From NCBI RefSeq assembly GCF_051622035.1, contig NC_135357.1, positions 33,522,191 to 33,586,190 on the forward strand: 64,000 nt of DNA, written 5' to 3'. Both the position numbers and the translations under genes were made by a program. The notes below the pieces were generated by a model. The model did not search any database. It was not told where the DNA came from and saw only the letters and a list, made by a program, of their open reading frames with translations. Position 1 is the stretch's first letter. Each line of letters begins with the position of its first letter. Positions 2,673-45,519 of this stretch are shown piece after piece. Source of the DNA: Arctopsyche grandis. Its lineage: Eukaryota > Arthropoda > Insecta > Trichoptera > Hydropsychidae.

Positions 2673-2767
2673 CATACATATATACATATATACAATATAT
2701 AAATGTATGTATCGTCATGGTATTGTTACGTTCGAGAAAAAAACGAAAGGAGATTGCTCTCTTTGCG

Positions 2768-2805
2768 TATAAATTGACGTGAATATTTTGCATTGGGCAT
2801 CAGTC
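2768..2805 (+). promoter_or_regulatory. Core promoter of gene A1 (TATA + initiator)
   Basis: TATAAA at 2768-2773 and an arthropod initiator TCAGTC at 2800-2805 place the transcription start near 2802. That is 46 nt before the ATG at 2848. The same arrangement precedes A2 (TATA 11683-11688, TCAGTC 11715-11720) and A3 (TATA 21719-21724, TCAGTC 21751-21756). Confidence 0.75.
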
Positions 2806-2847
2806 AGGTAGAGGCAACCAAACAAACAACATACCAAATATATTACT

Positions 2848-3880
2848 ATGGGCTTCATTGTGAGTTTTAAATGATATTGCAGGTAAAATTGTAACGAAAT
2901 AGCCACTAATTTAATCATATGTGCTTTAGATTGTCTTAAAACTAGCAGCTCTCTTGGCTGTGGCGGCTGCCTCAGCTGAGGAAAAGCAACAGCAGAAGAG
3001 GGGGCTATCAAATTTGGGGCATTATGGCTCATCTAGTGACTATTCCCAAGGAGGATACGATGGCGGACATGGAGGATACGGAGCTGGATCTGGTGGATTG
3101 GGAGGATTCGGAGGAGAATCTGGATTCGGAGGAGGTGATGGTGGTCTTGGAGGTGGAGCTGGTGGTTTCGGGGGTGGAGATGGTGGTTTCGGGGGTGGAG
3201 ATGGTGGTCTCGGAGGTGGTGATGCTGGAGTCCAAGTCAACACCGTGACCGTTCCCGTCCCCCAACCCTACCCAGTAACCGTCGAGCGTCGTGTCCCAGT
3301 TGAAGTACGAGTCCCAGTCAACAGACCAGTGCCGGTAGAAGTACCACAACCATACACAGTCAATGTAGAAAGGCGAGTTCCGGTCACCGTCAACAGACCA
3401 GTACCGTACACCGTAAGAGTGCCCGTTCAAGTGGTCCAGATCCAAAGAGTTGAAGTACCGGTGCCAAGACCGTACCCAGTCCCAGTCAATAGGCCAGTTC
3501 CAGTGCCAGTACCGAGGGCTATTATTATCGAAAGCCAAGTACCAGTTGTAGTAGGTGGAGGAGCTGGAGGAGCAGGAGGAGCTGGTGGAGCTGGTGGAGC
3601 TGGGGGTGCTGGTGGAGCAGGAGGTGCTGGTGGATTTGGAGGACTTGGTGGTGGATTTGGAGGTGGACTCGGTGGAGGATTCGGTGGACATGGTGTTTCT
3701 GGTGGATTCGGAGGGAGCTATGGAGGATTTAGCTCAGGTTCTCATGGTGGATACAGTTCCGGTGGATACAGCTCAGGTTCTCACGGTGGATTCAGCTCTG
3801 GTGGACTTTCTTCAATCCATGGTGGCGGATTCAGCTCAGGTGGAAAGACCTCTTCTCATCAAATCTCCATTAGACATTGA
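2848..3880 (+). CDS. Secreted Gly-rich / Val-Pro-Tyr block protein A1
   Basis: Two exons. Exon 1 is 2848-2859 (MGFI) with donor ATT|GTGAGT. A 70-bp intron ends in AG at 2928-2929, and exon 2 is 2930-3880, giving about 320 aa. Residues 1 to about 20 form a signal peptide (IVLKLAALLAVAAASA). Then come KQQQKRGLSNLGH, a Gly-rich arm (GGFGGGDGG type), a roughly 110-residue core rich in V, P, Y, R and Q with repeats like VPVPQPYPV, a second arm of GGAGGAGG and GGFGGG, and a Gly/Ser/His tail (SSGSHGG). AATAAA is at 3936-3941. The composition matches insect structural proteins of cuticle, silk or matrix. VPV/PYPV-rich cuticular proteins are known in insects (for example Drosophila Vajk proteins), but I cannot show orthology. 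A2 and A3 are near-identical copies. Without the tiny first exon the protein would lack its start and part of its signal peptide. The tissue role is inferred. Confidence 0.85.
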
Positions 3881-4135
3881 TTTATTATTATGCATAGTAT
3901 TGATGCTTTTTCCGCTGATATTTGATCATTGTTTTAATAAAATATAAAATGTTGATCATTTTTGTATGTTGGATGTTATATGTACTTAAAAAATAAAAAT
4001 ATATAAAAGTATTACTTGTGTTCTGTATTTTCTAATCACAAAAACACGTAATTACAATAAAAAATTATGTGATGAAAAAAGTACATAAAGTGAAATTTCA
4101 TATGAATATGAAAAAGCAGATTCATGGTCAATGAT

Positions 4136-4645
4136 AAGGGCAAAAACACACAGCAAGGAACGTGGCACATGGTATTTTTTGATACTTTTAAACAAGGTAT
4201 TCCACGAAAAAAAAGTGGAATACCTTGCACATATTCATGGCTCGCCGTCCCAAAATCAGCCCCCTAAAGTGTTTTTGGTAAAATTATATCATTGTATTTA
4301 TCCTTGCTTGAAAGTGATTGATAACGTTGTATCCCATATTTGAGAGATGTAGGAGAACCCCCACAGCGGGGAGTCAAGCACATAGCGTGCCGTTCTTCCC
4401 TGTGTGCAGTGCCGGTTTTAGGGGGGGGGGGCTAGGTCGTGCGGCGCCCGAGGGCGCCAAATAAGTTAGGGCGCCGCATGGTGCGCCAAAGGCACTTTAA
4501 AATTTAAAATTAGAGCGCCAAAAGCCATACAAAATTTTAGATTAGAGCGCCAAAAGCGAAACATTTTTTCTAAGGGTGCTTTAAAAAAAAATGCCCGAGG
4601 GCGCCATCGGGTGTAAGGCCGGCACTGCCTGTGTGTTTTCAACCT
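4136..4645. mobile_element. MITE with AGGGC-AAAACACACAG termini, interrupted
   Basis: The left end reads AAGGGCAAAAACACACAG and the right end is its approximate reverse complement (CTGTGTGTTTTCAACCT). It is the same family as the copy at 32504-32809. A second MITE (4407-4627) has inserted near its right end. Confidence 0.6.
4407..4627. mobile_element. hAT-type MITE with perfect 8-bp target duplication
   Basis: Terminal inverted repeats are CAGTGCCGGTTTTAG on the left and the complement of CAGTGCCGGCCTTAC on the right. It is flanked by the identical 8-mer CCTGTGTG at 4399-4406 and 4628-4635, the target-duplication size of hAT elements. It has no coding capacity (221 bp). It contains GGCGCC-rich sequence and a run of G, unlike the AT-rich host. 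It is inserted inside another MITE. Confidence 0.85.
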
Positions 4646-5405
4646 ATGTCCGTACATTTCATTGTTTGATCGTTTCATGTTGGTGGCTATTTATCAAGTC
4701 ATTGACAACTCATGCAAATATTTTTAATCCACAAAATTAATAATTAATCTTATGTTGACTGTAATTTTTGAAATGTATATTGAAACTGTTATTGAAATTT
4801 TTGGAACAATGTTTTTTTGAATAATATATATGTATTAACTCATTTTTAATAAAATGAGTTGAAAACTTTCTACCTTTCTTTTATCAACAAAACACAAAAT
4901 TATATATTTTTTAAAATTTTTTTTATTACCATATAAATCCGTTGGCAAGTGGGCTCCGTGATGAAATGGCCGTTCGACAAAATGTCCTAGAACCATTACT
5001 TAGAATACTATTTCACACGATTTCACTTTTGAGAAAATCATGTTTTCACAAAATAAACAGTTTGACAGTATTACTTTGGTCACAAATAGAAAATTTGGTC
5101 ACAAATCATCAATTTTTATTCCAATTCATGTTTTTTGTCACAGTTAAAAATCATTTACTTCATTGGAAACACATTCATTTTTTTAATCAAAGAATGCGGG
5201 ATTTTTCCGTAGTATTTTTACATATGCGAATTTCTCCAGGTGTCCAGTTTTCTGTGTGCTCTTCCTTTGAGTTCAGATTTTTCTCGAGCGGATTTTTAAT
5301 GTAGTTTTATCAGGTTATCGTTTGTATTAATCTTATATATGTTTGTAATTAAATAAAGTCAGTATCCTGATATAATCTCGGCTATTCCCAAGATTTTTGA
5401 CATCA
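4646..5405. other. AT-rich spacer, no gene seen
   Basis: No splice-consistent exon was recognised. Part of this spacer (about 5100-5290) resembles 16170-16400 near gene A2, so it belongs to the duplicated unit. Confidence 0.4.
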
Positions 5406-5870
5406 TCCTTCACCGTTCCATTGTTATGCAGTTCAAAAGATTGTTGTGTGATGAGCAACATAGCTTTACACCATGTCGTTCCACCACCACTAATCTTGCC
5501 TTTACAAATTTGATAATGTATAAAGCTGAAGTTGGTCAACAAGTACATGTAGTCTACTTTGACTTTCACAAAGTCTTTGATCGTGTCAGTAATGAAGCTC
5601 TTCTGATGAGGTTAGCTGAAGTGAAATTTTCAGCACGTTTTCTCAAACTTTTTGTATCTCAACTTGATAAGCAGCAATTCATTAGTTATGGTTTTTCTGA
5701 ATCATTTTTCACTAAATCTGGTGTAACTAAGGGTTCCACTTTTGGCCCCTTACTATTTACCATTCTCATAAATAACCTCCCTAGATAATATCCAATGCGT
5801 CATAACTCTTGTTTGCTGATGACGTCAAATTATTATTTTCTGTCAAGCTGATGTTAACGCTGTTTTAGAG
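5406..5870 (+). pseudogene. Jockey/CR1-like reverse transcriptase remnant (copy 1)
   Basis: An open stretch at 5426-5788 encodes RT blocks: a TPCRSTTTNL block, VYFDFHKVFDRV (the first catalytic Asp region) and SGVTKGSTFGPLLF. After a stop, the next block LFAD-D with its two catalytic Asp (5812-5823) continues in another frame. It is therefore a truncated, frameshifted LINE fragment. The same fragment recurs at 16494-16790, at a matching distance from gene A2, so it was present before the locus duplicated. Confidence 0.75.
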
Positions 5871-6108
5871 TTCAGTTATATTTTAAGTATAGAACTTAAT
5901 AATAATAATAATGAATTTTGATCTTCTCAATTCCATTTAGGCTTTGCAGAGATGTACATATTTTAATAACGACTGGTTCTTATACATATGTATGTATGTA
6001 TACCGGCTGTAGATGCGACATTCTCTACTTTGTATTTTATTATTTGGCATTTTTTTACTTTATCCGCTATTATTATAAAGCTATTGTTTTTTTACAATTT
6101 TATATAAA

Positions 6109-6614
6109 CTAGTGTTGTACCCGATGACATATCATCGCATGGCTGTTGGCATATTAAGTTATTAAATAAAAAAAAATTAAAAGAAATGTGTCGTGGGACA
6201 TGTGTTTGATTCTCACACGGTCGATTTTTTTCAAATACCTTTTAAATATATTTAATTGTTTAATATGAAAAAAAAAAGGTCAACTACCTATCTACCTACA
6301 TATAAACAATATAAAACACCGATTGAAAAATGAATTTATTAATTAATTAATTAAATAAATTTTCAGAGATTTAGCACCATCTATTTGCCTAGAGGAAGCA
6401 TTAGTATCGAACAGTATATACATATATAGCAGATTTTTGGCTTTCGTTATTATACTCGTATATATGTACGTTTTGGCAGTAGTTTAGCTGTGAAGTTTAT
6501 ACATATGTATGTACATATGTCGAATCGGAACGACTATTATAGTACGGCGAACGTTATCTCAAAAAGACAGAAAGACAGGCAGAATAGCGATACTATATGT
6601 ATATACATATATGA
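6109..6614 (-). mobile_element. Non-autonomous Helitron (family 2), solitary copy
   Basis: On the minus strand the element begins TCATATATG at 6614, with T on the plus side at 6615, and ends in CTAG at 6109-6112 followed by T. A short GATGA...TCATC hairpin lies before the 3' end, as expected for Helitrons. It is homologous to the insertions in the introns of genes B1 (7832-8202) and B2 (17966-18328). All three share the same outer boundaries, with different flanks here. Confidence 0.6.
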
Positions 6615-7641
6615 TGTATTTTTTTCCGTATAATATGTATGTATATATTTTTATTTTTCTCATCTCTCTGTATATTTTCGACCATTGAGGCGCATCAAGG
6701 ACTCCTGTAATTCCATTATGGTCCAAATTTAGACTTAAATAAATAAATAAAATATATAATAAAGGATATTTAATTGTAATTAATGGTCAGGAAATAAAAT
6801 AAAGTTTGGTACATGTGTACACACACATTCGGTTAAATAAACTTAAAACAGTCATAACAAATGGCCATCAATTGAATGATGGGAAGTTAGATGATTGTTT
6901 ATTTTATTCATATATGTATGTACAAGGAAAACCTAACATGTATGTATATGTATAACCCAATGCGCCTTTCTTGCAAATTACAATAAATATACTGTTTCAT
7001 AGAAACAGAGCTTAATGGATTATATGGATTGATCAGTTTTTTAATTAACTACTCAATTAATATTGATAGTTGGAAATACTATTTTCCTATTACACGTGAT
7101 TTAATTATTGTCTGAAGTGATAAAGACATTTTGATAAATTCAATAAAGGTATTTACTGACCAAACTAATATATGTAGTTACTGAGCAAAAATTTATTTGC
7201 CAATAAGTATAACATCAATCTTCGGAATAGAAGTCCAAATTGCTGTACCAAATTTATTGGAAATCAAACATATATACAATGCACATTTATTTATATGTAC
7301 ATATGTGTAATTTCTACAAATTTAATAAGTTCTCTTTCTTTATGAATTTGGTATTTCATACAATCCAAATAACTAAAATATTATTCATATTTTTCTCCAT
7401 TATTATGATTCAAAATGTATGTAAATTGTTTTTTAATTGTTAGACCGTGCAATAAACAGCTGAACGGAATTACAATAGGAAAATAACATTTCCTCCAGCT
7501 GAGATGATTTCTTTCAGTCACATATGCTCGAGTAAATTCCAAATCGTTACACAATGTACACATACATATGTATGTATATGCAAGAAGAATGTACATATGA
7601 CTGATTTATGTACATTCATATTACCAAAATTTGGAAATGGG
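6615..7641. other. AT-rich spacer upstream of gene B1
   Basis: A LINE-like 3' tail (AATAAATAAATAAA near 6735-6755) and AT-rich DNA, no gene seen. From about 7300 it is homologous to 17420 onward, upstream of B2. Confidence 0.4.
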
Positions 7642-7648
7642 TATATAA
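7642..7648 (+). promoter_or_regulatory. TATA box of gene B1
   Basis: TATATAA at 7642-7648 lies 63 bp before the ATG at 7711. The equivalent box of B2 is at 17776-17782 with near-identical flanks. The initiator is not clear-cut; CATTC motifs near 7674-7679 are candidates. Confidence 0.6.
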
Positions 7649-7710
7649 GCTGAGTGTTTGTATGGACAATTCATCATTCAAATCGGATCAGCAGTAGAAT
7701 CATCATCACA

Positions 7711-9098
7711 ATGATGAGCACGGTAATATTCCCATATAATTTTACAATAATAATATTGTTTTAAAGTATAAAAGCAAATTAAAACATTTTTAAAATGAAC
7801 TTGTATTACTCTTTTATAATAATTATATGTACTAGTGATGTACCCATAATGGATTTTTTTCAAATACCTTAAATATATAATTTAATATTTATATTTAATT
7901 GTTTAATATGAAAAAAATGGTAAAAACGTCATTTCTATCTACATACATATAAAAAATTATAAAACATCAATAGAAAAATAATGAATTAATTAAATAAATT
8001 TTCAATTTATGGCGGTAAATGCTCCGAGACTCCGCGCCGTATATTTGCCTAGAGAAAACATTGGTAGCAAACAGTATATTTAGCTGTGACGTACATATGT
8101 ATGTATGTCGAATCGAAACGACTATTATAGTATGGCGAGAGTTATCTCAGACATACAGACCGACACATAGAATTGCGATATTATATGTATATACATATAT
8201 GATCTACATATGTTTTATTGTGACAATTTGGTGTTTATTTTTTTAGTATTTAATAGTGTTGGCATTGTGTGCTGCATCGGGAGCAGCTGAAAACAAAAAG
8301 CAAGATAAACGAGGACTATCTGATTTGGGAGACGGAGGACATGGTTACTCCAGTGGAAGTTTTGAACACGGTGGATCAGGGGGAGGTTATAGTGGAGCTG
8401 GTGGATTTGGTGGAGCTGGAGGATTCGGTGGAGCCGGAGGATTTGGTGGAGCAGGTGGAGCTGGAGGATTCGGTGGAGCAGGTGGAGCTGGTGCAGCTGG
8501 TGGAGCCCCGCAAGTGATCACCAACACTATCCCAGTACCTCAGCCCTACCCAGTCCAAGTCGAGAGACAAGTCCCAGTACCTGTCCGAGTCCCTGTCGAT
8601 AGGCCCTACCCAGTACAAGTACCCAGGCCTTATCCAGTCCGAGTAGAGAGGCCAGTGCCTTACACCGTCGACAATCCCATTCCATACCCAGTCAGAGTTC
8701 CAGTGCGAGTAACAGTCATCAGGAGGGTCGAAGTACCAGTGGACCGTCCTTACCCAGTCCCAGTCTATAGGCCAGTTGCAGTGCCAGTGTCTCAGCCGTA
8801 CGTCGTTCAAAGGAACGTTCCAGTTTATATCAACGCAGGAGCTGGTGGAGCTGGTGGAGCTGGAGGTGCTGGAGGCTTCGGAGGAGCTGATGGAGGATTC
8901 GGTGGTGCTGATGGAGGATTCGGTGGTGCTGGAGGTTTTGACGGAGATGGAGGATATGGTGGAAACGGTGGAGATGGAGGTTTCGGTGGTCATGGATTAG
9001 GAGGTGGTAGTGGTGGATTTGGAAGCCATGGTGGCTCCTCTTCTTCCTATTCTTCTGAAAGTTCTTCAGCTCATGGAAGTTCATACTCCCACCATTGA
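7711..9098 (+). CDS. Secreted Gly-rich / Val-Pro-Tyr block protein B1
   Basis: Exon 1 is 7711-7722 (MMST, donor ACG|GTAATA). The intron is 7723-8246, ending TTTTTTAG, and exon 2 is 8247-9098, giving about 287 aa. The joined N-terminus MMSTYLIVLALCAASGAAEN is a signal peptide, followed by KKQDKRGLSDLGD. Next come a GGFGGAGG arm, a core with repeated VPVPQPYPV, RPYPVQV and VPVDRPYPV units, a second Gly arm (GGAGG, GGADGG, GGHGLGG) and a Ser-rich, His-ending tail. AATAAA is at 9144-9149. It is related to the A genes by its 12-nt first exon, the KRGLS(N/D)LG segment and its domain order, but it is a distinct subfamily. Its larger intron is explained by a Helitron (7832-8202). A structural extracellular role is inferred from composition. 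Confidence 0.85.
7832..8202 (-). mobile_element. Helitron insertion inside the B1 intron
   Basis: It starts CTAG at 7832-7835 on the plus strand and ends GA|T at 8202, i.e. TC...CTAG on the minus strand. B2 carries the same element at the same intron position (17966-18328). Removing it leaves an intron of about 153 bp. Confidence 0.65.
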
Positions 9099-9419
9099 TT
9101 ATTTTATGCAATGATATTTTGTACCAAATGTTAGGCTGGAATTAATAAAATTTATCAACCCAACAAATATACTCTTTTATTTGATAATATACACAAGTAA
9201 ACACATTGATTACAAAATTAAATAAATCAAATATTATTTTTATTTATTTACATATTTAAAAAAAAGTTTAAAATATACATTATACATATAATCTTAAATT
9301 TTATATGAACAGAATTATATTTTAATTCACGAATGCATTGACTGAATAGTTTTTAGTTAAAATGGATAGTAAAAGAAAATAAAAAAGAATAAAACATTTT
9401 TTTAATTATTGGAAACGTC

Positions 9420-10160
9420 GTAAGGCGACCATATTTCCCAGGTCTTCAAACGGGACGCTCCGCCGTAATAATAACCCTTAAATAACCTAATATTAATATT
9501 TTATAGGAATTATAATTTTTTTCCGAATGTACAATTCTTTTGTACATGTGAAATAGAAAGATAAAAAAATATACAATATGTGGTAATGATGCACCGCAGT
9601 CTGATTTTTTTCTGAATTGTATTAAATTAACAAATAAAATAACTACAAATATTTCAAAAATATATTCTCGATTTCTTATATTTACATAAATTATGTGAAA
9701 ATGAAAATTTCGATTTCATTAATCTTGATTCTTTGTTTTTTTAAGTAATATAATTTTTACTAGAACTTACATTTTTTTAAAAGAAGAAAATTAAACAAGA
9801 AAAAAAAATGATATAATATCGTATTTCACAGGTGTTTAAAATTAATTATGATGAAAATAAAAGCACAAAGCGATATTTTTTCAGAAACATGTAAATAATA
9901 TTTAAATATTACTTTAGAATGTATATATTGTATGTAAATGTATATTTATATAATAATATTTATTTTTGGGAAACAAATGATTTGGAAAAACAAGTAAAAA
10001 TATGAAGAAAAAAAATTTATCGAAAAAATTAATGAATTCTTATGCACATCAGTGGATGGGCAAAACTGGAAAAATCAAATAGTTTTACAAAAACAATATG
10101 CAGTACATAAAAAACTGTCCCGCCCAAACGGGACGTACAGTCAACCTACAAGGTCAAGGA
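9420..10160. mobile_element. MITE with TAGG-CGACC termini (copy 1)
   Basis: The left end GGCGACCATATTTCCCAGG and the right end GGGACGTACAGTCAACCTAC form imperfect inverted ends (TAGGGCGACCATA against TAGGTTGACTGTA). A shorter copy sits at 19507-20060, downstream of B2, so the insertion predates the tandem duplication. Confidence 0.45.
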
Positions 10161-10245
10161 CCTTTTACAAACTCTTTTTGAAGGCAGGAATTAAATTGTG
10201 ATTTTTATTTTATATATGTAAATCAGTAAAATTATACATATGTAT

Positions 10246-10540
10246 ATTAGGCATTGAAAGACACGAAGTAAGGGCGAAAATACACTGAATGGTAGGGGCC
10301 GTCACGTCCGTGGCAGCTTGCTGCTGTGACCGTAAACAATGGATGTTCCCCAAACCGAATTCGGGTGTAGTAGCACGTGCAGAATGCATTTGCTTGCAGT
10401 TCGCACTGGAGTCTATGCATATCCATATGCAAACGACAAGTTTCTCCTGCAGTTATTCAAATATGGGATTCACCGTTATCGATCACTGTCAAGCAAGGAT
10501 AAACTATCACCGAAAACACTCCAGGGGGTGATTTTTTCGC
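10246..10540. repeat. Degenerate AGGGCGAAAA-type MITE copy
   Basis: Contains GGGCGAAAATACACTGAATG and CTCCAGGGGGTGATTTTT, matching 20180-20400 and, in the other orientation, 32504-32809. The short ORFs in it are not conserved as protein. Confidence 0.5.
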
Positions 10541-11682
10541 ATATTTTAAAGTATCTAAAGAAAAGCAAGTATTATGTAGCAATCAGTGTGTTTTCATCTT
10601 AAAATGTGTATTTTGAAAAGAGTATTTTAAATGTTTTAAGACGAAAAATGTATCCTATACGTATTAAAACACATCTAACAAAGAACTGAAAATAAGTAGA
10701 CACCCTTTTCAATTTTCATTGGATCTGTGTGCAAAATTATGAGCATAAGTTTAAATAAAGGAATAAATGCACAATTAAAGAAAATATTCATCACAACTCG
10801 TCACAACAATTAATTTGAGCACATATGAGATAGCAAAACACTAAGAGGAGACAGTGTTCAAATTTTAATTTATTTGTCTTAAAAATCAAACTAAATAAAA
10901 ACATTCCAATATGTATCCATATGCTAAAGAAGGTGGTAAATTTTTTGAGTTTTACCCGAAGTGTATAAAAATTTTAAAATAAGCGGGACTAATAAGTTTC
11001 ACAACATCTTGTGCAAATCCGAATATGAAAGGTGAATGGCTTATGACATAAAAAATCATTACACATTATAAATAAATTAACGTATAATTGCACCGAATAA
11101 TATTATTTTCAAATTTATGTATTTTGTATAGGTATAATTATGGACACCGGTCTTGAAAATATCACTATAAACCTAATTCGTACTGCTTAATCGTGCTACA
11201 TAAACATAAATCACAAGGTAAAATGAGTTACTATTGGCATTATAAATTGGGTCTGGTAAGCGTTTAAGAGTTGGATTATTTTTAAAATTCAAAAATTAAA
11301 ATTCATCTAAAGTCATTCATCGAATCAAGAAATATCTAATTATGTACGGTGCATAAATTGAAATATCCATTTGGCAAATTTTTTGAGCTATTCCAATTGC
11401 TGCTGGCATGATTTGTATTTTACTATATAAATCCAGATTGGTCACTTCACGCTGAATTTAACTCAATCTCAAATATTTTTTTTACTAAATGTTTATATAT
11501 TTGTAAATTTGTTATTCTATTGTTTTCTATTTCTCCCACAGTTTGACGAATGATGTTTTTCAAAAACGGAAAATCTTTAGTTAGAACGAAAAATTGTCAA
11601 AATCTTCGTCAATGTGATGCAATGCTCAAAATCAAGAATGCATTAAGAAACAAAAAGAAAGGAGATTGCTCTGTAGTTTGCG
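10541..11682. other. Intergenic spacer upstream of gene A2
   Basis: AT-rich, no gene seen. It is homologous to 20460-21718 upstream of A3 but not to the DNA upstream of A1, which marks the left duplication breakpoint near 2735. Confidence 0.45.
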
Positions 11683-11762
11683 TATAAATTGCCATGCATA
11701 TGATGCTTTGGGCATCAGTCAGGTAGAGGCAACCAAACAAAGAACATACCAAATATATTACT

Positions 11763-12759
11763 ATGGGCTTCATTGTGAGTTTCAAATGATATTACAGGTA
11801 AGATTTTCACGGAATAACAACTAAATTTATCATGTTTGTTGTAGATTGTCTTAAAACTAGCAGCTCTCTTGGCTGTGGCGGCTGCCTCAGCTGAGGAAAA
11901 GCAACAGCAGAAGAGGGGGTTATCAAATTTGGGGCATTATGGCTCATCTAGTGACTATTCCCAAGGAGGATACGATGGCGGACACGGAGGATACGGAGCT
12001 GGATCTGGTGGATTGGGAGGATTCGGAGGAGAATCTGGATTCGGAGGAGGTGATGGTGGTCTTGGAGGTGGAGATGGTGGTTTCGGGGGTGGAGATGGTG
12101 GTCTCGGAGGTGGAGATGCTGGAGTCCAAGTCAATACCGTGACCGTTCCCGTCCCCCAACCCTACCCAGTAACCGTCGAACGTCGTGTCCCAGTTGAAGT
12201 ACGAGTCCCAGTTAACAGACCAGTGCCAGTAGAAGTACCACAACCATACACAGTCAATGTAGAAAGGCGAGTTCCAGTCACCGTCAACAGACCAGTACCG
12301 TACACCGTAAGAGTGCCCGTCCAAGTGGTCCAGATCCAAAGAGTTGAAGTACCAGTGCCAAGACCTTACCCAGTCCCAGTCAATAGGCCAGTTCCAGTAC
12401 CAGTACCGAGGGCTATTATTATCGAAAGCCAAGTACCAGTTGTAGTAGGTGGAGGAGCTGGAGGAGCAGGAGGAGCTGGTGGAGCTGGTGGAGCTGGGGG
12501 TGCTGGTGGAGCAGGAGGTGCTGGTGGATTTGGAGGACTTGGTGGTGGATTTGGAGGTGGACTCGGTGGAGGATTCGGTGGACATGGTGTTTCTGGTGGA
12601 TTCGGAGGGAGCTATGGAGGATTTAGCTCAGGTTCTCATGGTGGATACAGCTCAGGTTCTCACGGTGGATTCAGCTCTGGTGGACTTTCTTCAATCCATG
12701 GTGGCGGATTCAGCTCAGGTGGAAAGACCTCTTCTCATCAAATCTCCATTAAACATTGA
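11763..12759 (+). CDS. Secreted Gly-rich / Val-Pro-Tyr block protein A2
   Basis: Exon 1 is 11763-11774 (MGFI), the intron is 11775-11844 (70 bp, GTGAGT...GTAG), and exon 2 is 11845-12759, giving about 308 aa. It is near-identical to A1 across the signal peptide, the KRGLSNLG segment, the Val/Pro/Tyr core and the His-ending tail. It differs mainly by loss of one Gly-rich module in the N-terminal arm and one SSGGY module in the tail, so length variation lies in the Gly-rich repeats while the core is constant. The promoter has TATAAA at 11683-11688 and TCAGTC at 11715-11720; the polyadenylation signal is at 12815-12820. It presumably gives the same structural product as A1. Confidence 0.85.
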
Positions 12760-12829
12760 TTTATTATTATACATAGTATTGATGCTTTTTCCGTTGATAT
12801 TTGATCATATTTTCAATAAAATATAAAAT

Positions 12830-13203
12830 GTTGATCATTTTTGTATGTTGGATGTTATATGTACTTAAAAAATAAAAAAAAAAATAATAGTATTACTTGT
12901 GTTTGTTTTTCCTAATCACAAAAACAAGTATTTACAATAACAGATTATGTGACGAAAAAGGTACATAAATTGAGATTTCATATGCATTGAAACTTTGCCA
13001 TTTTGCGCAGTTTGGTCAACGATGGATATTACAATCAATTTTTATAGTTCGATGGTGAAAAATAATCGTCCAAATTAGCGGAAATTTTGATTACGGTGAC
13101 ATTTAATAGGTAGTTGCAGTATTTGTTTTACTTTTTGCCACCCACTCGTCTTGTTGGATTTTAATTGTTTAAACACCAATAAGTTTTTCATTTTCACACT
13201 ACA
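12830..13203. other. Spacer, no gene seen
   Basis: Continues the A-gene 3' flank, homologous to 3950-4110, then unique DNA up to the Helitron insertion point after A at 13203. Confidence 0.4.
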
Positions 13204-13424
13204 TCTAATCTATAATTTGGAAAGAGACTTTGTATGTATGTAAATATCCTTGGTCGTCGTCGTCGTCTTCGTCGTCGTCTTCGTCGTCCGTAGATCGGTG
13301 ACGTCATCGAACACGTGATTCGATTTTTTTTTTTTCGATCCATGGGCGCCGATTTTTTTTTTCGTTTCAATGGATTCACCCCCGCGGGGGCGCAAGGCGA
13401 GTAGTTTAATGGGGCCCCGCCAGG

Positions 13425-14255: not shown

Positions 14256-15090
14256 CTAATAGGCATTAACTAAGGGGGGCGAAGCCCTAGACGGCAATTA
14301 ATCATGGGGGCGCGGAGGGGCGAAGCCCTAAAAGGCAACTGATCATGGGGGCGAAGCCTTAGACGGCATTTAATCATGGGGGCGCGGAGGGGCGAAGCCC
14401 TAAAAGGCATTAACTAAGGGGGGCGAAGCCCTAAACGGCAATTAATCTTGGGGGCGCGGGGGGCGAAGCCCTAAAAGGCAACTGATCATGGGGGCGAAGC
14501 CTTAGACGGCATTTAATCATGGGGGCGCGGAGGGGCGAAGCCCTAAAAGGCATTAACTAAGGGGGGCGAAGCCCTAAACGGCAATTAATCTTGGGGGCGC
14601 GGGGGGCGAAGCCCTAAAAGGCAACTGATCATGGGAGCGAAGCCTTAGACGGCATTTAATCATGGGGGCGCGGAGGGGCGAAGCCCTAAAAGGCATTAAC
14701 TAAGGGGGGCGAAGCCCTAAACGGCAATTAATCTTGGGGGCGCGGGGGGCGAAGCCCTAAAAGGCAACTGATCATGGGAGCGAAGCCTTAGACGGCATTT
14801 AATCATGGGGGCGCGGAGGGGCGAAGCCCTAAAAGGCATTAACTAAGGGGGGCGAAGCCCTAAACGGCAATTAATCTTGGGGGCGCGGGGGGCGAAGCCC
14901 TAAAAGGCATTAACTAAGGGGGGCGAAGCCCTAGACGGCATTTAATCATGGGGGTGCGGAGGGGCGAAGCCCTAAAAGGCATTAACTAAGGGGGGCGAAG
15001 CCCTAAACGGCAATTGCTCATGGGGCGTGGAGGGGCGAAGCCCTAGAAGGCAAAGGCTCAGGGGGGCGCCGAGGGCGAAGCCCTAGAAGG
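14256..15090. repeat. 143-bp higher-order minisatellite of about 36-bp subunits
   Basis: Subunits of the form GGGGCGAAGCCCTAAAAGGC are arranged in a higher-order period. GGCATTAACTAA starts at 14406, 14549, 14692 and 14835, exactly 143 bp apart. The motif GCGAAGCC also occurs in the Helitron tail itself. Confidence 0.88.
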
Positions 15091-15262
15091 CAAAAAAAAA
15101 ATTTTGATTTTTTTTTGGATTTTTTAAAAATTTTTTTTTTAATTTTTTTTTTATTTTTTTTTTATTTTTTTTTTTTTTTTTTTTTTTGATTTTTTTTTTA
15201 TTTTTTTTTTATTTTTTTTTTTAATTTTTAAATTTTTTTTAAATTTTTTTTTTTTTTAATTA
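15091..15262. repeat. T-rich low-complexity block
   Basis: Long T runs interrupted by A or GA, within the Helitron before its 3' tail. Confidence 0.9.
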
Positions 15263-15329
15263 AATTAGCTTAGTCATGTTTAAGCGGTTTATATTATAAA
15301 CACTGAGCGAAGCCGGGTAATACAGCTAG

Positions 15330-16493
15330 TCTTATATAATTTGCATTATAGGCTCTCATTATCACTCATTAAATTAGTACTTCACTCATAGATAATATGT
15401 ACATATATTGAGTTTTTGAAATAATGTTTAAATTATCTTTTTATTTTATTTTATTATATTTAATATACATATATTAATTTTTATATATGTATATATTTTT
15501 TATATTACATTTACTAATCTTAGTAGGTTTTTTATATACATATTTTTTATATATTGACTTAATATTATATATACAAAATATATAAGAGGTTTGTTTTTAA
15601 AAACCTTTTTTATTATTTTTATGATTACTCAACACATACATAAATATAAATAAACTATTCGACGTGGGACACCTTGAAAATAATATTCAAATTTGTAAAA
15701 AGTATTGACACAATAATATCGCTTAGGGAAAACTTTGCTTTTAAGCCTGAATAGTTGATATTATATTTTTTTTATGTCGGAACATAAAATGCATAAATAA
15801 AATTAATGAAATAACAGTTTATTTGCAATTATAGATGGTCATCGTGATTTTTTTTTTTTTGAAGTTTGTATATGAGCCATCTAGTTTCAAAACCAGATAA
15901 GTCAGTTTTTATAAATTTTTCAGGAACAAGGAAAAACTTATAACTAGCTTAATTTTATTTTTATTTTTTTAAATATTTTATATAAACTGGTCATAGACGT
16001 TTACATCTTTGACTGTATTTTCACTTTTGACTGTATTTTCACAATAACTACGAGACTTACCTGATTTTGAAACAAACCTTGACTTTAGCTAAGTAATTCA
16101 ATAGGATGTAAATTCCTTTGAACTTTCTTACTTGGCCAACATATGGATCCGTATTTTATGATCATCCATCTTTCTTCCAAATCATGTTTATTGTCACAGT
16201 TAAAAATTATTTACTTCATTGGAAACATATAATTTTTTTTTAAATTAAAGAATACGGGATTTTTCTGTAGTATTTTTACATGCGCGCATTTCTCCAGGTG
16301 CCCAGTTTTCTGTGTGCAAGACCTTTGGGGAAAAAGGGAAGGAAAAGGAAAAAGGGAGACCTTTGAGTTCAGATTTTTCTCAAGCGGATTTTTAATATCG
16401 TAAGTATTTATAATACATATGTTTGTAATGAAATTTATAATACATATGTATTTTGCTATCATCTCGGCTATTCGCTTAAGATTTTTGATATCA
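15330..16493. other. AT-rich spacer, no gene seen
   Basis: Low-complexity AT-rich DNA. The right part (16170-16490) is homologous to 5090-5400 after A1. Confidence 0.4.
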
Positions 16494-16784
16494 TCCTTCG
16501 CCGTTCAATTCTTATGCAGTTCAAAAGATTGTTGTGTGATGAGCAACGTAGCTTTACACCATGTCGTTCCACCACCACTAATCTTGCCTGCTTTACAAAT
16601 TTGATAATGTCTAAAGTTGAAGTCGGTAAACAAGTGGATATAGTCTACTTTGACTTTCGCAAAGCCCTTGATAGTGTTAGTAATGACGCTCTTCTGATTC
16701 GGTTAGCTGAAATGGGATTTTCACCACGTCTTCTTAAACTCTTTGTTTCTTAACTTAGTGATAGGAAGCAATTTGTTAGTTATG

Positions 16785-16790
<6 letters not shown>
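16494..16790 (+). pseudogene. Jockey/CR1-like reverse transcriptase remnant (copy 2)
   Basis: It encodes CDEQRSFTPCRSTTTNL and IVYFDFRKALDSVSNDAL, then breaks at a stop and a (TA)n tract. It is the duplicate of the remnant at 5406-5870. Confidence 0.72.

Positions 16791-16847
<57 letters not shown>
16788..16847. repeat. (TA)n microsatellite
   Basis: Pure TA tract next to the 3' end of a SINE. Confidence 0.9.
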
Positions 16848-16850
<3 letters not shown>

Positions 16851-16866
16851 TTATTTTACATATATA

Positions 16867-17272
16867 CCAGGAAGGCCTTACAGGAAAATCCCAATGCGCC
16901 TTCCTGGCCAATTACAAATACAAATGCAGCATTTTTTTTTTATTATAAGTCGTTGAATTGCGAGACACTGAAAAAACTCGCAAATTAACGAGACATCTAT
17001 GAATTGTACATAAATTTTTATTGTACATCCATCAAATTTCAAATAGTGGTGACAGTAGGTAGGAAGGATTTTTAGCCAATTTTTTTTCCGGGAACCGTTT
17101 CAACAATGAAATCAGAGAAAATTGGCAAACTCTGATAGGAAACGATCAACCTGGAGTCACAAATCCAGGTCTGACCAACAGCATACTCTGAAAAATTCAT
17201 TTTCATTCAGGGATAGAACCCGGCACCTTCTTGACGATAAGCAGAAGCTTAACGTCCGAGCTATGCTGCTGG
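16867..17272 (-). mobile_element. tRNA-derived SINE copy 2
   Basis: Tail CCAGGAAGGCC at 16867, tRNA-like head ending at 17272 (AGCAGCATAGCTCGGACG on the minus strand, box B-like GGTTCTATCCC). It belongs to the same subfamily as 60926-61313. It is absent from the first duplicated unit, so it inserted after the duplication. Confidence 0.75.
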
Positions 17273-17775
17273 CTATATATATAATCATAGCTAATTACCC
17301 TGCTCGCGCAAATTAGGTGAGTATGTACCGTTTAGCATGCACCCTTTTTTTTTATCTTTCGATTTTTGATCTTTGCCTTTCGATATTTGTGTTTTCTGAT
17401 ATTTGCTTGATATTTGCTTTTTTACAAATTTAATAGGTTCCATTTCTTTACGAATTTGGTATTTCATATAATCCAAATAATTAAACTACAGTTTTTAATT
17501 TTTCCATCATTATGATTCAAAATGTATGCAAATCCATTATTTTAATGAAAATTGTTTTTTAGTTGTTAGACCTTGCAATAGACGGCTGAACGAACTTACA
17601 TACACTAGGAAAATAACATTTGCTCCAGCTGAGATGATTTCTTTCAGTCACATATGCTCGAGTAAATTCCAAATCGTTACACAATGTATGTCCAAATATG
17701 TATGTATATATATGCAAGTAGAATGTACATATGACTGATTTATGTATATTCATATTACCAAAATTTGGAAACGGG

Positions 17776-17782
17776 TATATAA
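17776..17782 (+). promoter_or_regulatory. TATA box of gene B2
   Basis: TATATAA, equivalent to the B1 box at 7642-7648 and 69 bp before the ATG. Confidence 0.6.
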
Positions 17783-17844
17783 GGTGATTGTTTGTATGGA
17801 CAATTCATCATTCAAATCGGATCAGCAGTAGAATCATCATCACA

Positions 17845-19236
17845 ATGATGAGCACGGTAATATTCCCATATAATTTTACAAAAATAATATTGTTTTAAAG
17901 TATAAAAGCAAATGAAAACATTTTTAAAATGAACTTGTATTACACTTTTATAATAATTATATGTACTAGTGATGTACCCATAATGGATTTTTTTCAAATA
18001 CCTTATATATAATTTAATATTTTTATTTAATTGTTTAATATGAAAAAAATGGTAAAAACTTCATTCCTATCTACATACATATAGACAATTATAAAACATC
18101 AATCGAAAAATAATTAATTAATTAAATAAACTTTCAATATATGGCGGCAAATGCTCCGAGACTCCGCGCCGTATATTTGCCTAGAGGAATCATTGGTAGA
18201 AAACAGTATATTTAGCTGTGACGTACATATGTATGTATTTCGAATAAAAGCGACTATTATAGTATGGCGAGCGTTATCTCAGACATACAGACCGACACAC
18301 AGAATAGCGATTTTATATATATGTATGATCTATATTTTATTGTGACAATTTGGTGTTTTTTTTTAGTATTTAATAGTGTTGGCATTGTGTGCTGCATCGG
18401 GAGCAGCTGAAAACAAAAAGCAAGATAAACGAGGACTATCTGATTTGGGAGACGGAGGACATGGTTACTCCAGTGGAAGTTTTGGACACGGTGGATCAGG
18501 GGGAGGTTATAGTGGAGCTGGTGGATTTGGTGGAGCTGGAGGATTCGGTGGAGCCGAAGGATTTGGTGGAGCAGGTGGAGCAGGTGGAGCTGGAGGATTC
18601 GGTGGAGCAGGTGGAGCTGGTGCAGCTGGTGGAGCCCCGCAAGTGATCACCAACACTATCCCAGTACCTCAGCCCTACCCAGTCCAAGTCGAGAGACAAG
18701 TCCCAGTACCTGTCCGAGTCCCTGTCGATAGGCCCTACCCAGTACAAGTACCCAGGCCTTATCCAGTCCGAGTAGAGAGGCCAGTGCCTTACACCGTCGA
18801 CAATCCCATTCCATACCCAGTCAGAGTTCCAGTGCGAGTAACAGTCATCAGGAGGGTCGAAGTACCAGTGGACCGTCCTTACCCAGTCCCAGTCTATAGG
18901 CCAGTTGCAGTGCCAGTGTCTCAGCCGTACGTCGTTCAAAGGAACGTTCCAGTTTATATCAACGCAGGTGCTGGTGGAGCTGGTGGAGCTGGTGGAGCTG
19001 GAGGTGCCGGAGGCTTCGGAGGAGCTGATGGAGGATTTGGTGGTGCTGATGGAGGATTCGGTGGCGCTGGAGGTTTTGGCGGAGATGGAGGATATGGTGG
19101 AAATGGTGGAGATGGAGGTTTCGGTGGTCATGGATTAGGAGGTGGTAGTGGTGGATTTGCAAGCCATGGTGGCTCCTCTTCTTCCTATTCTTCTGAAAGT
19201 TCTCCAGCTCATGGAAGTTCGTACTCCCACCATTGA
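17845..19236 (+). CDS. Secreted Gly-rich / Val-Pro-Tyr block protein B2
   Basis: Exon 1 is 17845-17856 (MMST, donor ACG|GTAATA), the intron is 17857-18366, and exon 2 is 18367-19236, giving about 293 aa. It is nearly identical to B1: the same signal peptide, KKQDKRGLSDLGD, an unchanged Val/Pro/Tyr core and the same Ser/His tail. The differences are extra GGA modules in the Gly-rich arms and a few substitutions (for example GGAEGF for GGAGGF). The intron carries the same Helitron as B1. AATAAA is at 19282-19287. Confidence 0.85.
17966..18328 (-). mobile_element. Helitron insertion inside the B2 intron
   Basis: CTAG at 17966-17969 and GA|T at 18327-18328. It occupies the same intron position and has the same ends as in B1, so it was inherited through the gene duplication. 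Confidence 0.65.
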
Positions 19237-19506
19237 TTATTTTATGCAATGATATTTTGTACCAAATATTAGGCTGGGATTAATAAAATTTATCAACCCA
19301 ACAAATATATTATTTTATTTGATAATATACATAAGTACATATATACAAATATACACATTGATTACAAAATTAAATAAATCAAATACTCTTTATAATTATT
19401 TGTATTTATTTACATATTTTAAAAACTAGAAGTTTAAAATGTACATTATATAATCTTAAATTTTATATGAACAGAATTATTTTTATTATTGGAAACGTCA
19501 CTTTAA

Positions 19507-20060
19507 AGTAGGGCGACCATATTTCCCAGGTCTTCAAACTGGACGCTCCGCCAAAAGTGTTGCACATAATAATAACCTAATATTAATAATTATTTCAATT
19601 ATCAATTTAAATTATTAATTTCAGTCACCGATACTAAGTTTCAGTTCGATAGGACTAACGGTGTTCAAAAAATCCCCAAAATACACACACACACACACAC
19701 ACACATTTTTTCTAAATCATGAAAACGTGATCAGTAATCGATTCCGAGTTCGAATCAGTCATAATCTCGAGTTCGAATTTTCGCATGATCACAAAACATG
19801 TAAAATTCATCATGTAAAAAATATTTAAATATTACTTTAGAATGAATATATTGTATGTAAATGTATATTTATATATTAATATTTGTTTTTGGGAAACAAA
19901 TGATTTGGAAAAACAAGTTTGAAAAAAAAAAAGAAATCTATCGGAAAAGAATTCTTCTGCTCATCAATGGATGGACAAAACTGGAAAAATAGTTTCACAA
20001 AAACAAGATGCAGTACATAAAAAACTGTCCCGCCCAAACGGGACGTACGGTCGACCTACT
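19507..20060. mobile_element. MITE with TAGG-CGACC termini (copy 2)
   Basis: The left end TAGGGCGACCATATTTCCC is at about 19509; the right end GGGACGTACGGTCGACCTAC is near 20040-20059. It is the duplicated counterpart of 9420-10160. Its interior holds a (CA)n run (19683-19704) and a piece of another repeat (CGATACTAAGTTTCAGTTCG), also found at 40140. Confidence 0.5.
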
Positions 20061-21718
20061 ATAAAATCATTTTGAAGGACCTTTTACAAACTCTTTTTGA
20101 TGGCAGGAATTAAATAGTGATTTTTTTTATAAATCAGTTAAATTCTACATATGTACATATGTATATTAGGCATTGAATGACACGAAGTAAAGGCGAAAAT
20201 ACACTGATTGGTATGGGACGTCACGTCTTTTGCTTCCCGCTATAATCGCAAACAGTGGGTGTTCCCCAAGCAGAATGCATATGCTTGGGAGTTCGCACGT
20301 TTATGCATATCCATATGCAACCGAAAAGTTTCTCCTGCATTCAAATATGGGATTCATCGTAAACTATCACCAAAAACACTCCAGGGGGTGATTTTTGGGA
20401 CTGTGTACCTTGTACCTTGTATATACCTTGAAAAGCACGTATTATGTAGCAATCAGTGTGTTTTCATCCTAAAAGGTGAATTTTGAAAAGCGTATCATTT
20501 TAAATGTTTAAAGACGAAAAATGTATCCTACAACTGTTAGATCACAGCTAATAAAGAACTGAAGACACCCTTTTCAGTTTTCATTTGATCTGTAAGCAAA
20601 ATTATGAGCATAAGTGCAAATGCAAAATTAAAGAAAATATTCATCACAATTCATCACAAAATTAATTTGAGCAAATAAAAACATTAAAATATGTATCATA
20701 TGCTAAAGAAGTGTGGTAATTTTTTTGAGTTTTTCCTGATATGTATAAAAAGTTGAAAGTTTGAAAATGGCGGTATAAGTTACACAACATCTTGTGCACG
20801 TCCGAATATGTAAGGCGATATAATATAATCTTTTTGATATGCCCAGGTTTACCACTAATTACTCATTGAACTCAGCTATGTTGAGACTGCACAGAGTTGG
20901 AAACGAATTATCCATGGTCGATTTATTCATTGTTAGTAAATATAACATGAAATCTATTTTATTTAAATATTTTTTTAATATAATGTAATTTATTTTGTAG
21001 TATATGAATGTATGTGTATTTTTCTTTTATATTTCATTTTAATTTTTTTTCTTTTTCTTTCTCTATTTCCAACATGTAAAATGGTCAATTTTTTCTTGAC
21101 CGTAAAATAAAATAAAATAAAAAATAAAAATAAATAAAAAATAATTCTGTGTCCATAATTATGTGTTTTGTATAATTTTGAAACACCGAAGTCTTGAAAA
21201 TATCACTTTGAACCTAATTCGTACTGGCTAATCGTGCTACATAATCAGAAATCACAAGTTGAAATGAGTACTATTGGCATTATAAATTTGGTCTGGTAAG
21301 CATTTGAGAGTTGGATTATTTAAAATTCCAAAATAAAATTCATCAAAAGTCATTCATCGAATCAAGAAATATCTAATTACGGTGCATAAATTGAAATATC
21401 CATTTGGAAATTTTTTCAGCTATTCCAGTAGCTGCTGGCATGATTTGTATTTTACTATACATATAAATCCAGATTGGTCACTTCACGCTGAATTTAACTG
21501 AATCTCAAGTATTGTTTTTACTAAATGTTTATATATTTGTAAATTTGTTATTCTATTGTTTTCTATTTCTCCCAAAATTTGACGAATGATGTTTTTCAAA
21601 AACGGAAAATCTTTAGTTCGAACGAAAAATTGTCAAAATCTTCGTCAACGTGATGCAATGCTCAAAATCAAGAATGCATTAAGAAACAAAAAGAAAGGAG
21701 ATTGCTCTGTAGTTTGCG
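20061..21718. other. Intergenic spacer upstream of gene A3
   Basis: Homologous to the DNA upstream of A2. It also holds a LINE-like 3' tail with AAATAAAATAAA repeats (about 20820-21150) not seen upstream of A2. No gene seen. Confidence 0.45.
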
Positions 21719-21798
21719 TATAAATTGCCATGCATATGATGCTTTGGGCATCAGTCAGGTAGAGGCAACCAAACAAACAACATACCAAATATATTACT

Positions 21799-22786
21799 AT
21801 GGGCTTCATTGTGAGTTTCAAATGATATTACAGGTAAGATTTTCACGAAATAACAACTAAATTTATCATGTTTGTTGTAGATTGTCTTAAAACTAGCAGT
21901 TCTCTTGGCTGTGGCGGCTGCCTCAGCTGAGGAAAAGCAACAGCAGAAGAGGGGGTTATCAAATTTGGGGCATTATGGCTCATCTAGTGACTATTCCCAA
22001 GGAGGATACGATGGCGGACACGGGGGATACGGAGCTGGATCTGGTGGATTGGGAGTATTCGGAGGAGAATCTGGATTCGGAGGAGGTGATGGTGGTCTTG
22101 GAGGTGGAGATGGTGGTTTCGGGGGTGGAGATGGTGGTCTCGGAGGTGGAGATGCTGGAGTCCAAGTCAACACCGTGACCGTTCCCGTCCCCCAACCCTA
22201 CCCAGTAACCGTCGAACGTCGTGTCCCAGTTGAAGTACGAGTCCCAGTTAACAGACCAGTGCCAGTAGAAGTACCACAACCATACACAGTCAATGTAGAA
22301 AGGCGAGTTCCGGTCACCGTCAACAGACCAGTACCGTACACAGTAAGAGTGCCCGTCCAAGTGGTCCAGATCCAAAGAGTTGAAGTACCAGTGCCAAGAC
22401 CTTACCCAGTCCCAGTCAATAGGCCAGTTCCAGTGCCAGTACCTAGGGCTATTATTATCGAAAGCCAAGTACCAGTTGTAGTAGGTGGAGGAGCTGGAGG
22501 AGCTGGTGGAGCTGGTGGAGCTGGGGGTGCTGGTGGAGCAGGAGGTGCTGGTGGATTCGGAGGACTTGGTGGTGGATTTGGAGGTGGACTCGGTGGAGGA
22601 TTCGGTGGACATGGTGTTTCTGGTGGATTCGGAGGTAGCTATGGAGGATTTAGCTCAGGTTCTCATGGTGGATACAGTTCCGATGGATACAGCTCAGGTT
22701 CTCACGGTGGACTTTCTTCAATCCATGGTGGCGGATTCAGCTCAGGTGGAAAGACCTCTTCTCATCAAATCTCCATTAAACATTGA
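21799..22786 (+). CDS. Secreted Gly-rich / Val-Pro-Tyr block protein A3
   Basis: Exon 1 is 21799-21810 (MGFI), the intron is 21811-21880 (70 bp) and exon 2 is 21881-22786, giving about 305 aa. It has the A-type domain order: a signal peptide (one Ala to Val change), KRGLSNLG, a short Gly arm, the conserved Val/Pro/Tyr core, the GGAGGAGG arm and the SSIHGGGFSSGGKTSSH tail. Relative to A1 it lacks a Gly module in each arm, and its tail has SSDGY in place of SSGGY. Promoter elements are at 21719 and 21751; AATAAA is at 22854-22859. The 3' flank diverges from A1 and A2 after about 22860, marking the right edge of the duplicated array. Confidence 0.85.
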
Positions 22787-22860
22787 TTTATTATTATTAT
22801 CTCTATATAATATCATTGCCTTTTTTGCTGATCTTTGATCATCATTTTTCCAAAATAAAA

Positions 22861-23469: not shown

Positions 23470-27313
<3,844 letters not shown>

Positions 27314-45506: not shown

Positions 45507-45519
45507 TATAAAATACTGG

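What the first reader, a model, noticed from the sequence alone, without database searches (positions are those of the whole stretch)
2735..22860. Alternating A-B-A-B-A array of block-copolymer-like secreted proteins
Five intact genes of two related subfamilies alternate in direct orientation. The central Val/Pro/Tyr core is almost unchanged between copies, while Gly-rich arms vary by whole modules. That pattern suggests selection on the core and slippage or gene conversion in the arms. The combination of Gly-rich arms around a VPVPQPYPV core could be a self-assembling cuticle, silk or adhesive material; I cannot name a described family with certainty. This is the best candidate in the window for an undescribed system.
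Basis: partly seen in the sequence, partly recalled or inferred. Interest (0 to 1): 0.8.

Follow-up and report, generated by a model that had tools for sequence, protein, structure and literature searches.

The report
Duplicated insect cuticle-type protein genes
Five neighbouring insect genes make secreted proteins with flexible glycine-rich arms around a strictly patterned valine-proline core; they look like members of a known class of cuticle protein, multiplied and kept alike by gene copying, and their core follows an unexpectedly strict every-second-residue rule that many relatives in other insects share.

Summary
Five intact genes (A1, B1, A2, B2, A3; all + strand) lie at 2848-22786 and form a tandem array of an approximately 10-kb A-B unit.

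It is not an isolated undescribed system. The same genome has a 14-gene cluster on contig C13 and weaker relatives elsewhere, and related proteins occur in at least eight insect orders. Architecture and PV/PY-pair density fit CPLCP/Vajk-type cuticular proteins; no hit bears that name and no expression was seen, so membership is inferred.

Within A and within B the cores are identical in protein. Core dN/dS against C13 copies is 0.07-0.12. Similarity includes silent sites and near flanks, then drops to 78-82% in spacers, which indicates gene conversion; the 432-bp B1/B2 identity run spans the core and ends inside both arm repeats.

Unexpected: a parity rule. In 19 of 19 cores every proline sits on one residue parity and 91% of Val/Ile on the other. 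Of 75 further sequences with a PV core, 39 keep all prolines in phase. This suggests an extended two-residue register with one hydrogen-bonding edge blocked; limited searches found no description of it.

The parts
2848..3880 (+). Gene A1: exon 1 2848-2859, intron 2860-2929, exon 2 2930-3880; TATA at 2768; core 3233-3553 (107 aa)
   Evidence: exon 1 inferred from sequence
7711..9098 (+). Gene B1: exon 1 7711-7722, intron 7723-8246, exon 2 8247-9098; TATA at 7642; core 8517-8831 (105 aa)
   Evidence: exon 1 inferred from sequence
11763..12759 (+). Gene A2: exon 1 11763-11774, intron 11775-11844, exon 2 11845-12759; TATA at 11683; core 12127-12447 (107 aa)
   Evidence: exon 1 inferred from sequence
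17845..19236 (+). Gene B2: exon 1 17845-17856, intron 17857-18366, exon 2 18367-19236; TATA at 17776; core 18646-18960 (105 aa)
   Evidence: exon 1 inferred from sequence
21799..22786 (+). Gene A3: exon 1 21799-21810, intron 21811-21880, exon 2 21881-22786; TATA at 21719; core 22163-22483 (107 aa)
   Evidence: exon 1 inferred from sequence
8438..8869 (+). 432-bp run identical between B1 and B2 (silent sites included), spanning the core and ending inside the N-arm repeat (8392-8506) and the C-arm repeats (8837-8931)
   Evidence: 0 of 2000 shuffles reach it
3506..3872 (+). Run of 352 aligned identical positions between A1 and A2: end of the core plus almost the whole C-arm (an indel lies inside it)
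   Evidence: 0 of 2000 shuffles reach it
9405..11035 (.). B1-A2 spacer with three blocks colinear with the B2-A3 spacer (19485-20818) at 78-82% identity: the divergence not homogenised

Best explanation
The array is a lineage-specific tandem amplification of an A-B pair of secreted structural proteins of the insect CPLCP/Vajk type (proline-rich low-complexity cuticular proteins). A signal peptide and a KR site lead into a three-block mature protein. The 105- or 107-residue core is an extended chain with a strict two-residue register: Val/Ile, most Tyr and many Arg on one side, all Pro with Glu, Thr, Asp and other Arg on the other. In a strand this leaves one edge short of amide donors, so the core could pair on its free edge (with another core or with chitin) without growing into an open sheet. 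The Gly-rich arms stay disordered and fill or cross-link the matrix. More copies raise output, and gene conversion, probably helped by the arm repeats, keeps copies alike. Shown here: gene structure by sequence, core constraint, length lock, parity, conversion-like tracts. Inferred: cuticle location, strand conformation, one-edge pairing, cross-linking, dosage.
For: Cores of 105 or 107 residues in 19 of 19 genes while N-arms span 29-311 and C-arms 27-190. PV+PY pairs 16-23 per core, no Gly or Cys in any of 19 cores. All Pro on one parity in 19 of 19. Core dN/dS 0.07-0.12 in eight window-C13 comparisons. Silent divergence 5-13 per about 230-250 sites against 268/1233 in spacers. Identity runs. 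Core-only AlphaFold2: pLDDT 80 with pTM 0.17, fitting a locally defined chain that does not fold on itself. Literature passages: CPLCP defined by PV/PY pairs (PMC7497268); recovered mosquito CPLCPs only in the unextracted pellet (PMC5395146); CPLCPs abundant in moth scales and likened to articulins (PMC8062583); conversion in Drosophila CPR arrays associated with coding repeats (PMC2793513).
Against: No expression or proteome data. None of the 78 database hits is named cuticular, CPLCP or Vajk (names as listed, some cut). Only 10 of 78 passed a crude test for Gly-rich blocks on both sides. Of 75 sequences with a PV core, 26 have two or more prolines out of phase. The full-length model is low confidence, and neither model shows a sheet. 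No Nimrod-type neighbour supports a Vajk orthology. B1/B2 whole-gene dN/dS is 0.36, not different from 1 by a site test.
Confidence: 0.68

Rival explanations
1. The proteins are a secreted silk, glue or egg-coat material, with Gly arms as the amorphous phase and PV cores as linking segments, not exoskeleton cuticle.
For: Gly-rich low-complexity arms with repeats, signal sequence and no Cys in the mature protein; tandem copies suit high output.
Against: Related PV-core proteins occur in orders without shared silk or glue; composition fits the published CPLCP description. No expression data either way.
Confidence: 0.15
2. There is no conversion: the copies are simply young, and the spacers diverged faster or are older insertions.
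For: Spacers hold repeats and transposon pieces, so part of their divergence may not date the duplication. The spacer figure counts alignment gaps as differences. The A2/A3 and A1/A3 runs are only modestly unusual (66 and 167 of 2000 shuffles).
Against: Colinear spacer blocks lie between gene blocks of much higher identity within the same duplication. The A1/A2 intron differs at 14/70 while silent sites differ at 13/251 (P 3e-4). B1/B2 core 0/87 silent against intron 31/510 (P 0.015). Two identity runs beat all 2000 shuffles.
Confidence: 0.15
3. The parity is only inherited unit structure: cores grew by duplicating even-length units (4 or 8 residues), with no structural demand for the register.
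For: Even-lag self-similarity, strongest at lag 8 for B (z 6.6); a unit-based origin gives even spacings automatically. My Markov null does not model this.
Against: Core changes between A and B (57 replacement differences) created no proline on the other parity: 0 of 1016 residues over 19 genes. Arms of the same genes show odd-length indels, cores of 10 chosen close pairs none. Parity persists in hits from several orders.
Confidence: 0.35
4. The core is a flexible polyproline-II or disordered elastomer, and alternation has no strand meaning.
For: Proline 21-27% of core residues; no strand in the core-only model, where DSSP gave nothing.
Against: A three-residue helix does not predict a two-residue rule (textbook knowledge); Val/Ile at alternate positions suits an extended strand.
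Confidence: 0.35
5. They are intracellular epiplastin/articulin-like skeleton proteins.
For: 4-11 VPV modules per core, above the more-than-3 mark used for articulins; [quoted passage not shown]
Against: N-terminal signal sequence and KR site in all five window genes; no Pfam family above cut-off; that paper reports apparently one copy per insect genome, against at least 19 here.
Confidence: 0.03

Closest known systems
CPLCP cuticular proteins (low complexity, proline-rich), including Drosophila Vajk proteins
   Same: Proline as PV and PY pairs, enrichment in V and Y, signal peptide, no Cys in the mature part. An Anopheles paper names Vajk-4 as the D. melanogaster orthologue of CPLCP3, acting in cuticle barrier formation (PMC8667434, passage).
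   Different: Here long Gly-rich arms flank a core locked at 105 or 107 residues; direct homology to a named CPLCP or Vajk protein was not shown. Lysine, listed for CPLCP, is largely replaced by arginine in the A and B cores.
CPG glycine-rich cuticular proteins
   Same: Gly-rich repeats in the arms; three silkworm CPGs were later renamed CPLCPs (PMC8062583, passage).
   Different: Here Gly is confined to the arms: 0 Gly in 19 of 19 cores.
Articulins / epiplastins (protist membrane skeleton) and insect epiplastin-like proteins
   Same: Medial V/P-rich domain with many VPV modules between head and tail (PMC6212826, passages; counts).
   Different: Signal sequence present; few acid-base dyads (0-7 per core); multicopy here.
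Concertedly evolving CPR cuticle-gene arrays (Drosophila 67F, 84A)
   Same: Tandem paralogues homogenised around the central domain, conversion associated with coding repeats in 84A (PMC2793513, section 7 part 1).
   Different: Different protein family: no R&R chitin-binding domain was matched here.

Membership tests
CPLCP | High proline content as PV and PY pairs (PMC7497268, passages) | tested here: met
   16-23 PV+PY pairs per 105-107-residue core in 19 genes; 20 or 23 in the five window genes
CPLCP | Secreted (signal peptide) | tested here: met
   Hydrophobic N-terminus split by a phase-0 intron in 5 of 5 window genes, by inspection; no signal-peptide predictor was run
CPLCP | Three conserved sequence motifs of the family (mentioned in PMC8062583) | not tested
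   Motifs are not given in the passages seen
CPLCP | Sequence homology to a named member | tested here: inconclusive
   78 hits in three capped searches, none so named
CPLCP | Present in cuticle | not testable with these tools
   No transcript or proteome data for this genome
Vajk (Drosophila) | Location in the Nimrod gene cluster (title of Cinege et al. 2017, seen only as a reference in PMC13207783) | tested here: inconclusive
   The one EMI-domain match in this genome is at C1:32.78 Mb, 9.7 Mb from the nearest PV-protein genes and not on C3 or C13; the exon-wise search can miss Nimrod genes, and EMI as a Nimrod marker is recalled
Vajk (Drosophila) | Chitin binding / barrier function | not testable with these tools
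   Only passing statements in papers seen
CPR (R&R consensus) | Chitin-binding R&R domain | tested here: not met
   No such match at E up to 1 in 5 of 5 proteins
CPG | GXGX or GGXG repeats (PMC12426002, passage) | tested here: met
   Arms 46-50% Gly with tandem repeats; but the core carries none
Articulin/epiplastin | More than 3 VPV modules in the medial domain | tested here: met
   4-11 per core in 19 genes
Articulin/epiplastin | Numerous acid-base dyads in the medial domain | tested here: inconclusive
   0-7 per core; 2 in A1-A3 and 4 in B1-B2
Articulin/epiplastin | Encoded in an organism that assembles an epiplast | tested here: not met
   Insect-type genome, by nearest relatives; proteins carry signal sequences

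The most novel reading that the evidence does not exclude
Insect PV-rich cuticle-type proteins obey a parity code. Over about 100 to 280 residues proline is allowed only on one side of an extended chain, and core indels must be even. The core is a long 'one-edged' beta-strand: its proline edge caps sheet growth, and its Val/Tyr/Arg side pairs with one partner (another core or chitin). This is a built-in limit on aggregation in a self-assembling material whose Gly arms are free in length: a design rule for a protein class spread over insects, not found in print (open-licence papers only).
Probability: 0.33. Interest if true: 0.75.

Novelty: new member of a known kind. Interest (0 to 1): 0.5.

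Why it matters
As a gene array it is another case of cuticle-gene amplification with conversion, here in a class that the Drosophila study I read left out (PMC2793513 excluded CPLCP; passage). The length and parity lock gives a sharp structural prediction for a protein class for which no clear solved relative was found. If right, it explains how valine-rich chains can assemble into insoluble cuticle without open-ended sheet growth, and it offers a simple rule for block-copolymer materials. [quoted passage not shown]

Tried and rejected
Rejected: (a) B exon 1 immediately before exon 2: it would need a 27-nt intron and B1 and B2 do not share the same ATG frame there; the shared TATA plus MMST|GTAATA exon about 520 bp upstream was taken instead. 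(b) The piece at 6223-6624 as a B promoter relic: it matches the B intron, and a further copy of part of it lies on C13 near 23460500-23460650, over 6 kb from the nearest listed family gene, so it looks like an interspersed repeat. (c) Keratin-head (below cut-off in 4 of 5 proteins), GRP and weak PDB matches: taken as compositional. (d) Nimrod synteny: no support. (e) Full-length model: pLDDT 49.5, pTM 0.17; no fold search was made on either model. (f) Rfam and tRNA scans of the window: 0 matches. (g) Plasmid collection: no match.

Results against my reading: 26 of 75 sequences with a PV core have two or more prolines out of phase, and 7 of 82 examined had no core of at least 70 residues and were dropped. 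For database proteins alone: 71 of 78 had a core, 35 perfect, 45 with at most one off, 2363 prolines in phase and 120 not. Two rotifer hits (P0019, P0054) are 21/13 and Cimex P0075 is 32/10. Relatives were found with family profiles, so they are not a random sample. Only 10 of 78 database proteins passed the crude two-arm Gly test. One C13-C13 core comparison gives dN/dS 0.27, and for one distant pair dS was saturated. DSSP 'gave nothing' for the core model, which may mean no element or no answer.
Full report
What is there. Five intact frames lie in direct orientation at 2930-3880 (A1), 8247-9098 (B1), 11845-12759 (A2), 18367-19236 (B2) and 21881-22786 (A3). They are exon 2 of two-exon models. 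The first coding exon is 12 nt: ATGGGCTTCATT before GTGAGT for A (70-bp intron), and ATGATGAGCACG before GTAATA for B (524- and 510-bp introns). Each model has a TATA box 69-80 nt upstream of the ATG and an AATAAA 45-67 nt after the stop. The introns are phase 0 and split the signal peptide. These exon calls rest on sequence alone; in A2 and A3 another ATG/donor pair just downstream scores higher.

The array. Self-comparison shows a unit of about 10 kb, A plus B plus spacer. Three spacer blocks between B1 and A2 are colinear with those between B2 and A3 at 78-82%. So A-B-A-B-A is (AB)(AB)A. The A2 protein searched against the whole genome (475.7 Mb, 189 contigs) gave 34 matches. On C3 only the five window genes matched. 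Fourteen genes in mixed orientation lie on C13:23.41-23.48 Mb, with A-like copies up to 89% identical, and weaker matches lie on C8, C1, C6, C2 and elsewhere on C13. The C13 cluster, one C8 gene and three C1 genes were fetched and read. A search with B2 did not complete, so counts are lower bounds.

The proteins. Each window protein has a signal sequence, a KR site, a Gly-rich N-arm, a V/P/Y/R core and a Gly/Ser-rich C-arm. In 19 of 19 genes (5 window, 14 C13) the core is 105 or 107 residues; the alignment needs one 2-residue gap. N-arms range over 29-311 and C-arms over 27-190 residues; for one C13 gene without a KRG match the N-arm figure (53) includes the signal sequence. In 10 close pairs chosen by me, not independent of each other, the core has no indel and the arms have many, odd lengths included. 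The core is constrained: A1/A2 9 silent and 0 replacement changes (Fisher 6.4e-6), A2/A3 5 and 0 (0.0014); eight window-C13 comparisons give dN/dS 0.07-0.12, four comparisons within C13 give 0.05-0.27, and a fifth was saturated.

Concerted evolution. Silent differences between copies (13/251, 9/244, 5/230) are far below spacer differences (268/1233, gap columns counted as differences; P 1.4e-11 or less). The A1/A2 intron keeps 14/70 differences while the exons do not (P 3e-4). For A2/A3 the similar block runs from about 600 bp upstream to just after the stop codon and then falls off. B1 and B2 share a 432-bp identical run, 8438-8869, which contains the whole core (8517-8831) and ends inside the repeats of both arms. 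A1 and A2 share 352 aligned identical positions over the end of the core and the C-arm. Both runs exceed all 2000 shuffles; the A2/A3 and A1/A3 runs are reached by 66 and 167 of 2000. Published work on Drosophila CPR arrays describes conversion associated with coding repeats in the 84A array, but not in 67F, and homogenisation of the central domain (PMC2793513, section 7 part 1). A and B look independent of each other: silent divergence in the core is above 1.

The parity rule. Counting from the start of the core, all prolines (23-28 per core) fall on one parity in 19 of 19 genes, with 32-39 Val/Ile on the other parity and 2-5 on the same. Pooled, 0 of 1016 residues on the second parity are proline; 665 are Val or Ile, 124 Arg, 107 Tyr; on the proline parity 63 of 997 are Val or Ile. 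Among 78 database proteins and four paralogues, 75 of 82 had a PV-dense core of at least 70 residues. In 39 of 75 every proline is in phase, in 49 at most one is not; in total 2583 against 120. Named examples: Tribolium 34/0, Bemisia 35/0, Homalodisca 38/0, Dufourea 61/0, Aphomia 63/0, Bacillus rossius 32/0, Lucilia 21/0, Ischnura 30/1, Zootermopsis 52/1, Drosophila novamexicana 29/2, Cimex 32/10. A dipeptide-based Markov null reached the observed value in 0-2 of 5000 simulations for nine cores that I chose. The null does not model duplication of even-length units, and the relatives were found with family profiles.

What the rule suggests. A two-residue repeat is that of an extended strand, not of polyproline-II or an alpha-helix (textbook knowledge). 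In a strand, alternate residues point their amides to opposite edges, so proline confined to one parity blocks one edge only: a core could pair once and stop. AlphaFold2 of the B2 core with 32 relatives gives pLDDT 80 (91 of 105 residues at 70 or more) but pTM 0.17, and DSSP gave nothing; the full-length A2 model is low confidence. This fits a locally defined chain that does not fold on itself, but it is weak support, and the strand is inferred.

What it is. Pfam gives no family above cut-off for the window proteins and the PDB no clear relative. The 78 database hits include beetles, hemipterans, wasps and bees, moths, flies, a damselfly, a stick insect and a termite (species names; orders from my knowledge), plus rotifers that are probably compositional; all three searches hit their candidate cap. 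The published description of CPLCP, proline as PV and PY pairs (PMC7497268, passages; PMC12105342, passages), is met. In mosquitoes, recovered CPLCPs were found only in the unextracted pellet (PMC5395146, passages). CPLCPs are among the abundant proteins of moth scales and have been likened to articulins (PMC8062583, passages). A survey of protist epiplastins notes insect VPV-rich proteins of unknown function, apparently single copy (PMC6212826, passages). The two papers that would settle details (Cinege et al. 2017; Cornman and Willis 2009) are not held and were not read.

Verdict. The system is best read as an amplified, concertedly evolving set of CPLCP-type cuticle proteins, ordinary in kind. 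The strict length and parity of the core is the part worth following.

Noticed in passing
13423-15257: GC-rich minisatellite next to A2 (90-bp unit, then a 72/143-bp unit), followed by a T-rich tract, in an otherwise AT-rich region.
   Followed up: no
24172-27166: Large reverse-transcriptase-like frame (24596-27166, 856 aa) with an overlapping upstream frame (24172-24690), a non-LTR retrotransposon by reading its residues; pieces of its 3' part recur at 35557-36297, 45519-45960 and 52837-53079.
   Followed up: no
5105-5695 and 16161-16789: Two 79%-identical copies of a reverse-transcriptase-like fragment, one in each A-B spacer.
   Followed up: no
6223-6624: Partial copy of the B-gene intron (72-82% identical); part of it also on C13 near 23460500, so the B intron seems to hold an interspersed repeat.
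   Followed up: partly
29527-30000 and 34061-34381 (- strand): Open frames that read like kelch-repeat fragments (by eye).
   Followed up: no
G000:C13:23453065-23454639: Family member with a 311-residue N-arm of GxxQGSFG-type repeats around an unchanged 107-residue core.
   Followed up: partly
G000:C1:23.02-23.05 Mb (L021, L022, L023): Three PV-rich genes with cores of 263-271 residues, all prolines in phase (63/0, 65/0, 69/0); one has the EKKLDKRGLLNLGYGYG start also seen in Drosophila hits.
   Followed up: partly
P0024 (database protein, unnamed contig): 81% identical over 185 residues to the short C13 gene at 23482265, with the same 105-residue core, so a fairly close relative has been sequenced.
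   Followed up: partly
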